From contig NC_092565.1 in assembly GCF_037975245.1 (NCBI RefSeq), positions 18,083,999-18,147,998 on the forward strand: a stretch of 64,000 nt of DNA, in the 5' to 3' direction. Each line of letters starts with the position of its first letter. Within the stretch, counting starts at the first letter, position 1. The notes under the pieces are model-generated. The model did not search any database, had not been told where the DNA came from, and saw only the letters and a program-made list of their open reading frames with translations. The position numbers and the translations under genes are program-made. Of this stretch, positions 43,301 through 48,342 are shown one piece after another. The DNA comes from Apostichopus japonicus. Lineage: Eukaryota; Echinodermata; Holothuroidea; Aspidochirotida; Stichopodidae.

Positions 43301-46300
43301 CATGGTTTGCTTAACAGCATATGCAGAAAGAATAATCAATTCGAAAATTTGACTTAGCAATTAACATAATAGTTTAAATTCATCCCTTGTTGTACACTAT
43401 CCAATTCAGTTGTATAATAAACTAAGTGTAAGTTGTATGTATCTGCATTACATCGTGAAACCTTTAATGGTTATTATTAAATAAAACTAGGTGAATGTAT
43501 AGCTGATCGGCATCTCTTCATTCTGACACTCTACATCATTCAAGTATATGTAAATTGTTTATACTGAGAACAAAGCCCAAATACACGCTGCAAGAGCCTG
43601 TGGAACTATAGGAAATGTGCATTAAAGTTAATTTTACTTACCATAAGAACTACATCTTACACCAGCGTCCATTGAGTGGGAACAGACGTGGTCAGTCATG
43701 TAAGCACAATCAAGAAGAGAGCTTTCAAAGCCCGAGCATTGGACATCATCTAAGTGTATTACACCATTTCCTTTGGCGAAAAAAACCGAATTTAGCAATC
43801 CAAGAGACCCTTGAAAACCTAGTTGACGACAAACGACATCAGCATCACTAATGTCCCACTGATCGTCACAAACTGTGCCCCATTCACCATTCAAGAAAAT
43901 CTCAACTCTTCCCGCTGTAGCATTCCCGTCTTCAAGACGAAGTTGTCCTTCATAGTACGAATCTGAAGGAATAGTCACAAATAACATTTAGTTGACCAAA
44001 CATGAATTGTAAACCCAAACTGTACGAGTCTTTTTTAACTTTAAAGTTATAGTATTAGTTATAATAAAATAGCAATATGAACTTGCACTTAACATTTAAC
44101 GACAACTACTGTTAATGTATTAAAAGGATAATTTCATCATGAAATCAACAACTGATAGCATTTATTCTTTTTATTTATTTCACTAACCATCAAAAGAAGC
44201 ACAGCTGACGCCAGCGTCCTCGTGGTGCCCACAGTCGTGGACAGTTGTGTGAACACAATCAAGTAGAGAACTTTCAGAGCCTGAACACACAACGTCGTCT
44301 AAGTGTATCAATCCTGTTCCTTCTGAGAAGAAGGCGAAACTAAGCGCTCCAATAGCTTCGTCAAATCCCAGTTGACGACAAACTACTTCAGCATCACTAA
44401 TGTCCCAAACATCATCACAAACTGTGCCCCATTCACCATTCAAGAAAATCTCAACTCTTCCCGATGTAGCATTCCCGTCTTCAAGACGAAGTTGTCCTTC
44501 ATAGTACGAATCTGAAGGAATAGTCACAAATAACATTTAGTTAACCAAACATGAAAGGTAAACCCAAACGGTACGAGTCTTTTTTAACTTTAAAGTTATA
44601 ATATTAGTAATAATAATTTTGCAATATGAACTTGCACTTAACATTTAACGACAACGTCGTTAATGTACTAAAAGGATATTTTCATCATGAAATCACCAAC
44701 TGATAGCATTTGTTCTTTTTATTTATTTCACTAACCATCAAAATATGTACAGCTGACGCCAGCGTCCTCGTGGTGCCCACAGTCGTGGACAGTTGTGTGA
44801 ACACAATCAAGTAGATAACTTTCAGAGCCTGAACACAAAACGTCGTCTAAGTGTATCAATCCTGTTCCTTCTGAGAAGAAGGCAAAACTAAGCGCTCCAA
44901 GAGCTTCGTCGAATCCCAGTTGACGACAAACTACTTCAGCATCACTAATGTCCCAAAAATCGTCACAAACTGTGCCCCATTCACCATTCAAGAAAATCTC
45001 AACTCTTCCCGATGTAGCATTCCCGTCTTCAAGACGAAGTTGTCCTTCAAAATATTAATCGAAAGGAATAGTCACAATTTACATTTAGTTGACCAAACAT
45101 GAAAGGTAAACCCAAACGGTACGAGTCTTTTTTAACTTTAAAGTTATAATATTAGTAATTATAATATTGCAATATGAACTTGCACTTAACATTTAACGAC
45201 AACTACTGTTAATGTATTAAAAGGATATTTTCATCATGAAATCACCTACTGATAGCATTTGTTCTTTTTATTTATTTCACTAACCATCAAAATATGTACA
45301 GCTGACGCCAGCGTCCTCGTGGTGCCCACAGTCGTGGACAGTTGTGTGAGCACAATCAAGTAGAGAACTTTCAGAGCCTGAACACTCAACGTCGTCTAAG
45401 TGTATCAATCCTGTTCCTTCTGAGAAGAAGGCGAAACTAAGCGCTCCAATAGCTTCGTCAAATCCCAGTTGACGACAAACTACTTCAGCATCACTAATGT
45501 CCCAAACATCATCACAAACTGTGCCCCATTCACCATTCAAGAAAATCTCAACTCTTCCCGATGTAGCATTCCCGTCTTCAAGACGAAGTTGTCCTTCAAA
45601 ATATTAATCGAAAGGAAAAGTCACAATTTACATTTAGTTGACCAAACATGAAAGGTAAACCCAAACGGTACGAGTCTTTTTTAACTTTAAAGTTATAATA
45701 TTAGTAATAATAATATTGCAATATGAACTTGCACTTAACATTTAACGACAACTACTGTTAATGTATTAAAAGGATATTTTCATCATGAAATCACCTACTG
45801 ATAGCATTTGTTCTTTTTATTTATTTCACTAACCATCAAAATATGTACAGCTGACGCCAGCGTCCTCGTGGTGCCCACAGTCGTGGACAGTTGTGTGAGC
45901 ACAATCAAGTAGAGAACTTTCAGAGCCTGAACACTCAACGTCGTCTAAGTGTATCAATCCTGTTCCTTCTGAGAAGAAGGCGAAACTAAGCGCTCCAATA
46001 GCTCTGTCAAATCCCAGTTGACGACAAACTACTTCAGCATCACTAATGTCCCAAACATCATCACAAACTGTGCCCCATTCACCATTCAAGAAAATCTCAA
46101 CTCTTCCCGATGTAGCATTCCCGTCTTCAAGACGAAGTTGTCCTTCAAAATATTAATCGAAAGGAAAAGTCACAATTTACATTTAGTTGACCAAACATGA
46201 AAGGTAAACCCAAACGGTACGAGTCTTTTTTAACTTTAAAGTTATAATATTAGTAATAATAATTTTGCAATATGAACTTGCACTTAACATTTAACGACAA

Positions 46301-48342: not shown

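What the first reader, a model, noticed from the sequence alone, without database searches (positions are those of the whole stretch)
44736..47783. Six consecutive SRCR exons with a lost 3' splice site, an in-frame stop and a phase-preserving backup AG
In B5 and B12 the acceptor reads CAG followed by ATTCGTA, then (C/T)(A/T)TGAAGG or TTTTGAAGG. In B6-B8 the CAG is TCG and the next in-frame codon is TAA. In B9-B11 it is TTG, with TAA one codon later. The two variants are different mutations, yet both leave the GAAG|GA inside the exon and both raise T content before it (TATGAAG becomes TTTTGAAG or AATTTGAAG). Using that AG skips the TAA, shortens the linker between SRCR domains by five residues (DSYYE) and joins G|GA as Gly in frame. 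All six exon bodies and donors are intact. Either the acceptor moved inward and then spread by array amplification, or six intact-looking exons are silently skipped and the protein length depends on splice choice.
Basis: partly seen in the sequence, partly recalled or inferred. Interest (0 to 1): 0.82.

Follow-up and report, generated by a model that had tools for sequence, protein, structure and literature searches.

The report
Receptor exon array with moved splice site
In an immune-type receptor gene of an unnamed animal, six neighbouring copies of one exon have lost their usual splice signal and seem able to join only through a weak backup signal slightly further in, so the receptor is either a little more compact or variable in length; without RNA data we cannot say which.

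Summary
In minus-strand gene B, SRCR exons B6-B11 lack the outer 3' splice-site AG that B4, B5, B12 and all eight gene-C copies keep. The old first codons hold TAA, and the first AG left is GAAG|GA, in phase, 15 nt further in.

Copies outside the window change the history. Nearby gene D holds an exon fossil (P1) with the same TCG loss but no stop, a fossil (P2) with the outer TAG intact, and three exons (D1-D3) without the outer site whose acceptor probably moved to a strong TAG|AA three bases from the proposed site. The simplest reading is one shared loss, with the stops arising later and separately.

Inner use gives CD163-like spacing between domains. Evidence against full inclusion: the inner site scores weak (0-1 of 19 curated acceptors lower), B6-B11 show no significant purifying selection, exons of the array exchange sequence, and gene B's tail is truncated.

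Best reading: the acceptor moved inward and the exons are included at least in part, perhaps as weak cassettes in a receptor of 6 to 12 SRCR domains. One-sided splice-site shift and SRCR-domain skipping are both known kinds. No RNA was available.

The parts
53843..53930 (-). signal-peptide exon of gene B, donor CAAG|GTAGGT, phase 1
   Evidence: similar exons with the same donor in genes C (77789) and D (105269); frame
48019..48342 (-). SRCR exon B12, outer acceptor TTTCAG intact
47475..47783 (-). SRCR exon B11 from the proposed inner acceptor GAAG|GA; outer site reads TTG; TAA upstream (type I)
46927..47235 (-). SRCR exon B10, type I, as B11
46383..46691 (-). SRCR exon B9, type I acceptor, type II downstream intron (chimera)
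45834..46142 (-). SRCR exon B8 from inner acceptor; outer site reads TCG; TAA upstream (type II)
45285..45593 (-). SRCR exon B7, type II, as B8
   Evidence: Pfam SRCR E 3.5e-30
44736..45044 (-). SRCR exon B6, type II, most diverged exon body of B5-B12
44188..44511 (-). SRCR exon B5, outer acceptor CAG intact
43642..43962 (-). SRCR exon B4, outer acceptor CAG intact, closest to C1
42628..42927 (-). next SRCR domain of gene B (acceptor TTAG|ACGAAGG)
41899..42204 (-). next SRCR domain of gene B (acceptor TTTAG|ATGAAGG)
   Evidence: Pfam SRCR E 2.8e-22
40787..41104 (-). last SRCR domain of gene B
40166..40396 (-). HYR domain of gene B
   Evidence: Pfam HYR E 1.1e-16
39833..40156 (-). membrane helix and start of cytoplasmic tail; TAG stop at 39830-39832 where A and C read on

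Best explanation
Gene B codes for a type I membrane receptor: signal peptide, up to 12 SRCR domains (one per exon, the array exons all phase 1-1), a HYR domain, a membrane helix and a short tail. In an ancestor of the array shared with gene D, the outer 3' splice-site AG in front of one SRCR exon was lost (TAG or CAG to TCG), probably once. The five former coding codons (D-S-Y-Y-E) then became intron sequence, and stops arose there separately in types I and II. The first AG left after the pyrimidine tract is GAAG|GA, made by the conserved Glu-Gly codons. It is in phase, so splicing there keeps the frame and shortens the linker by five residues. The unit then spread by tandem amplification and exchange. 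Because GAAG is a weak acceptor, B6-B11 are probably included only in part. Shown: sequence, phase, open frames, the comparative series. Inferred: single loss, use of the inner site, degree of inclusion.
For: Outer AG absent in six copies and inner GAAG|GA in phase. Segment before GAAG compared in 23 units: in-frame stops in 0 of 13 with outer AG intact and 6 of 10 with it lost, i.e. 2 of 5 distinct lost sequences. Between type II and B5 the last 20 nt before the exon body differ at 6 sites, against 8-10 of 219 in the rest of the intron (Fisher P 0.0007 with 10); type I against B4 gives 5 of 20 against 25 of 215 (P 0.09); types I and II differ there about as introns do, 4 of 20 against 35 of 215 (P 0.43). 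Fossil P1 has TCG and no stop; P2 has TAG. D1-D3 lack the outer site and have TAG|AA, scoring above 15 of 19 acceptors from outside this array family. No AG for 51 nt (B11) or 80 nt (B8, B6) before the inner site. Inner use leaves 6 residues between the last Cys and the next L-R-L; CD163 has 5-7 at four junctions (my count). An AAG acceptor precedes three other SRCR exons of this genome (inferred from frame). B9 against D1: 8 synonymous and 8 nonsynonymous differences, P 0.013.
Against: The inner site is weak: -0.3 (type II) and 1.2 (type I) in a matrix from 19 acceptors outside the family, 0 and 1 of 19 lower; -1.1 and 0.0 in the 23-site matrix, near the middle of all AGs of the region; a recalled human-like matrix puts it in the lower-middle range. 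B6-B11 show 12 nonsynonymous to 5 synonymous changes (ratio about 0.69, P 0.33), whereas C2-C8 with intact sites show 13 to 13 (0.29, P 0.002); the two do not differ significantly (P 0.22). D1-D3 show 20 to 5, and with D2 and D3 the B-D ratios are 0.58-0.81. Types I and II share nearly identical exons (B6 apart) despite 15.5-17% intron divergence, so intact exons B5 and B12 may keep the others clean by gene conversion. Gene B's tail is cut by a stop with further decay behind it. No transcript was available.
Confidence: 0.6

Rival explanations
1. B6-B11 are skipped all or nearly all of the time. Without the strong outer site the spliceosome joins B12 to B5; every exon of the array is phase 1-1, so the frame holds and the receptor has six SRCR domains. 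The six exons are passengers kept readable by recent duplication and exchange with B5 and B12.
For: Outer sites of B12 and B5 score 8.6 and 7.0, the inner sites -0.3 to 1.2, in a matrix without this family. Skip product is open. 12:5 nonsynonymous to synonymous changes in B6-B11, not different from neutral. Exon homogenisation. In bovine WC1 the commonest short form lacks five contiguous SRCR domains and keeps six (PMC2681482, passage).
Against: No stop or frameshift in 6 of 6 exon bodies, while exon fossils P1, P2 and D4 in gene D are broken. Comparison with D1, which also lacks the outer site, shows constraint. D1-D3 have a strong acceptor after the loss, suggesting inclusion was useful there.
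Confidence: 0.25
2. Gene B is on its way to being a pseudogene, so neither shift nor skip is under selection. The acceptor loss, the stops and the tail truncation are all decay.
For: TAG in place of a Ser codon, a 1-nt deletion and a 28-nt deletion in the tail relative to A and C. No significant purifying selection within B5-B12 (13:6, P 0.24). Neighbouring gene D is damaged.
Against: Signal peptide, 12 SRCR exons, HYR and membrane helix are all open. Tail truncation alone does not kill a receptor: two bovine WC1 cDNAs with premature tail stops are reported (PMC2681482, passages).
Confidence: 0.13
3. The repeats or the splice-site changes are assembly errors.
For: Units are 90-100% alike at spacings of 544-549 bp, the kind of array that assemblers can miscount.
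Against: Two separate sequence types, plus the TCG state again in D1, D3 and P1, roughly 44-55 kb away. An error would not repeat in this way. Copy number could still be wrong.
Confidence: 0.02

Closest known systems
One-sided 3' splice-site shift / intron sliding (Drosophila; PMC2891723, passages read)
   Same: Cryptic in-frame splice site at a multiple-of-three distance replaces the old one; intron sequence stays in place
   Different: Here the shifted state is repeated in six tandem exons of one gene, with fossil intermediates and a stronger relocated site in a neighbouring paralog; the donor did not move; no RNA proof
WC1 / CD163 group B SRCR receptors (PMC2681482, passages read; PDB CD163 chains)
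   Same: Tandem SRCR domains; WC1 transcripts lack one to six whole SRCR domains, most often five contiguous ones leaving six; first domain never missing; tail stops occur
   Different: HYR domain next to the membrane; the candidate skipped exons are marked in the genome by a lost acceptor; isoforms here are not shown
Expanded SRCR gene clusters of sea urchin (PMC10855680, passages read)
   Same: Tandem gene clusters, each SRCR domain mostly in a single exon, very many domains in the genome (150 scored of 712 candidates here, a lower bound)
   Different: Species here not identified; that paper's main text has no word starting with 'hyr' and one starting with 'splic'
Tandem alternative acceptors (NAGNAG and wider; PMC3250501 and PMC8055015, listing and abstract starts only)
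   Same: Two nearby in-phase acceptor AGs in the intact copies (15 nt apart)
   Different: In B6-B11 only one of the two is left

Membership tests
SRCR superfamily receptor | SRCR domain by profile | tested here: met
   B7 exon E 3.5e-30 to PF00530, above cut-off
SRCR superfamily receptor | secretion signal and membrane helix | tested here: met
   signal-like exon conserved in B, C, D; hydrophobic stretch conserved in A, B, C, D; by hydropathy and conservation, no dedicated predictor
One-sided 3' splice-site shift | old acceptor destroyed in derived copies and intact in relatives | tested here: met
   lost in 10 of 23 units, intact in 13 of 23
One-sided 3' splice-site shift | new site in phase, multiple of three away | tested here: met
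   15 nt; frame open through the ten exons from signal peptide to B4
One-sided 3' splice-site shift | new site is used in mRNA | not testable with these tools
   no transcript data held; a genome search with the 549-bp unit gave 62 matches (lower bound), the longest outside the cluster 138 bp, so no retrocopy was seen
One-sided 3' splice-site shift | new site has the strength of normal acceptors | tested here: not met
   0-1 of 19 acceptors from outside the family score lower (0-1 of 23); met for D1-D3 TAG|AA (15 of 19 lower)
Cassette-exon SRCR receptor (WC1-like splicing) | exons symmetric in phase | tested here: met
   B12-B4 all have lengths divisible by 3 and phase 1 at both ends
Cassette-exon SRCR receptor (WC1-like splicing) | isoforms differing in SRCR number | not testable with these tools
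   needs cDNA

The most novel reading that the evidence does not exclude
Gene B is a receptor whose length is set by splice strength: six cassette SRCR exons with weak acceptors lie between exons with strong ones, so each cell makes a mixture of receptors with 6 to 12 SRCR domains, and array amplification of the weak unit widens that mixture.
Probability: 0.3. Interest if true: 0.65.

Novelty: new variant of a known kind. Interest (0 to 1): 0.45.

Why it matters
The cluster holds the steps of an exon boundary moving side by side: outer site intact, outer site lost with the frame still open, outer site lost with stops, and outer site replaced by a strong inner one. That is a good series for watching coding sequence turn into intron. 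If the weak inner sites are used in part, it would also show how a germ-line receptor array could become variable in length without new genes, in an animal with a very large SRCR repertoire.

Tried and rejected
Splice-site model by expectation-maximisation: 62 SRCR exons taken, 3 of B6-B11 left out of training, 8 of the other 59 without a candidate, 51 used. Rejected, because it was dominated by copies of the array itself and picked wrong AGs (for example GAAG over TAG in D1-D3, seen). Replaced by 23 hand-picked acceptors. These were chosen by frame, not by cDNA, and 4 of the 23 belong to this array family (one of them the D1 site itself), so inflates the outer and D1 scores; one search repeats the test with the other 19.

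Retrocopies as a record of past splicing: the unit was sought in the whole genome (62 matches, a lower bound); the strong matches lie in the C5 cluster, and outside it the best by E-value is 131 bp at 76% and the longest 138 bp at 74%. A pattern search for the spliced junction did not complete.

Signal peptide of gene A as a query for B, C, D: no convincing match; the exons were found instead by hydropathy plus donor. Upstream AGs as acceptors in the introns before B8 and B11: none closer than 80 and 51 nt to the inner site. AlphaFold was not used, since a spliced join is not a letter-for-letter window protein and the linker question was addressed with CD163. Species naming was not attempted. 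The human-like matrix is from memory.

Full report
Setting. The window lies at C5:18083999-18147998 of a 671.6-Mb genome in 35 contigs; 150 SRCR matches were scored of 712 candidates, a lower bound. I fetched 100 kb on each side. A profile built from six window SRCR exons finds a cluster of four minus-strand genes, here A (26-37 kb), B (39.8-53.9 kb), C (58-78 kb) and D (80-105 kb) in window coordinates; apart from a truncated domain at 22063-22179 that profile search of ORFs shows none elsewhere in the 264 kb. Two broken exons of gene D that it missed were found through. Each SRCR domain sits in one exon. A 2024 survey reports single-exon SRCR domains and tandem clusters for sea urchin (PMC10855680, passages), so an echinoid-like animal is likely, but I did not identify the species.

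Gene B. It has a signal-peptide exon (53930-53843, donor AAG|GTAGGT, phase 1) with counterparts in C and D, the array B12 to B4, three further SRCR exons, a HYR domain (E 1.1e-16) and a membrane helix. The ten exons from the signal peptide to B4 join in one open frame when B6-B11 start at the inner site. The tail ends at a TAG where A and C read on, with a 1-nt and a 28-nt deletion behind it.

The observation. Bodies and donors are intact in all eight exons B5-B12.

The series outside the window. I compared 23 units: C1-C8, B4-B12, D1-D4, P1 and P2. Thirteen keep an outer AG (C1-C8, B4, B5, B12, D4, P2) and none of these has a stop in the segment. Ten have lost it (B6-B11, D1-D3, P1); six of these, two of five distinct sequences, carry a stop. 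P1, a broken exon at 91.4 kb, reads CCTTTCG ATTTGTATTTTGAAGG. From that stretch type II differs by two bases, type I by two, and D1/D3 by one base plus loss of about 32 nt of upstream intron that in the other units holds the pyrimidine tract (read by eye). P2, also broken, has CCTTTAG at that point. One loss (TAG to TCG) followed by separate TAA mutations therefore explains the data with fewest steps. The intron tree nests B4 and B5 (intact) with type II, so either their acceptor region was copied in from a C-like unit or loss happened twice. In B5 the last 20 nt match B4 exactly while the rest of the intron differs at 16 of 219 sites, which favours copying. The intron tree has low support at its deep nodes (43-63%) and excludes P1, D4, B12 and C8, whose upstream introns align poorly.

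D1-D3. Here the sequence before the exon is ttttcgatttgtatttAG|AAGGACAACT, or close to it in D2. TAG|AA keeps the frame (G|AA = Glu). In a matrix from 19 acceptors outside this family it scores above 15 of 19 in each of D1, D2 and D3; the higher ranks (20 and 19 of 23) are inflated because D1 was in that training set. So a paralog without the outer site appears to have gained a strong acceptor three bases from the site proposed for B. Gene D as a whole is damaged: P1, P2 and D4 are broken, and no HYR domain or last SRCR exon was found.

Strength of the inner site. Outside-family matrix: GAAG|GA scores 1.2 in B11 (type I, 1 of 19 lower) and -0.3 in B8 and B6 (type II, 0 of 19 lower), against 8.6 and 7.0 for the outer sites of B12 and B5 (16 and 14 of 19 lower). 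In the 23-site matrix the inner scores are 0.0 and -1.1, with 66% and 56% of all AGs in the region scoring lower. With a recalled human-like matrix the inner sites (4.1 and 3.5) lie in the lower-middle of the 23. Three SRCR exons in L031 have a TTTTAAG acceptor as their in-frame AG, so an A before AG is not excluded. The first-AG rule favours the inner site: no AG for 51 (B11) or 80 nt (B8, B6) upstream. The pyrimidine count of the tract (10 of 15) is not higher than in P1 (11), P2 (10) or B12 (10), so the inner site shows no sign of improvement since the loss.

Protein. Two domains joined at the inner site (206 aa) align over residues 2-203 to CD163 (605.7 bits over five stretches). Between the last Cys of one domain and the L-R-L of the next I count 6 residues, against 5-7 at four CD163 junctions shown and 11 with the outer site.

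Constraint. B6-B11: 12 nonsynonymous, 5 synonymous, ratio 0.69, P 0.33. B5-B12: 13 and 6, P 0.24. C2-C8: 13 and 13, ratio 0.29, P 0.002. D1-D3: 20 and 5. B6-B11 with D1-D3 together: 34 and 13, P 0.26. B6-B11 and C2-C8 do not differ significantly, P 0.22. Across the B-D split, ratios with D1 are 0.27 (B9), 0.32 (B11), 0.38 (B7) and 0.42 (B6), P 0.013, 0.03 and 0.04 for the first three; with D2 and D3 they are 0.58-0.81 (B9 and B7; B8 and B10 were not paired with D). Exons of types I and II differ by 0.3-3% for B7-B11 (4-6% with B6) while their introns differ by 15.5-17%, so exon exchange with the intact copies B5 and B12 can hide or mimic constraint. The constraint test is therefore inconclusive.

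Reading. If B6-B11 are in the mRNA at all, the inner site is very probably how (about 0.85, judgement). That they are included in a substantial share is about 0.6. A mixture, giving 6 to 12 SRCR domains, fits the weak sites best and has a close parallel in bovine WC1, where cDNAs lacking one to six whole SRCR domains were found, most often five contiguous ones leaving six, and the first domain was never missing (PMC2681482, passages). One-sided 3' splice-site shift is described in Drosophila (PMC2891723, passages). I saw no paper on this combination in the listings, which cover open-licence papers only and of which I opened three (passages).

Noticed in passing
window 39500-39832: Cytoplasmic tail of gene B is cut by a TAG (Ser codon in A and C), followed by a 1-nt and a 28-nt deletion.
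   Followed up: partly
window 48408-48466: Decayed start of another SRCR exon (59 bp, 76% to B12) lies about 65-125 nt upstream of the B12 acceptor; the upstream end of the array.
   Followed up: partly
window 44100-48019: Exon bodies of types I and II differ 0.3-6% while their introns differ 15.5-17%; B9 is a chimera of the two types. Looks like exon-limited gene conversion.
   Followed up: partly
L011:6500-7900 (window 90500-91900): Two broken SRCR exons of gene D (P1, P2) that preserve other states of the acceptor; P2 runs into unrelated, repeat-like sequence.
   Followed up: yes
window 63442 to 67845 (the last part in L009): Gene C has a parallel array of eight SRCR exons with intact outer acceptors; C2-C8 show purifying selection.
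   Followed up: yes
window 33932-34030 and 22063-22179: Truncated SRCR exon remnants in and beyond gene A.
   Followed up: no
window 8112-15886 (+): Exons of a sialic acid synthase-like gene: NeuB (two ORFs) and SAF domains.
   Followed up: partly
window 5293-5553 (+): Reverse transcriptase fragment, weak match below Pfam's cut-off (E 7.5e-4), LINE-like by my recall.
   Followed up: no
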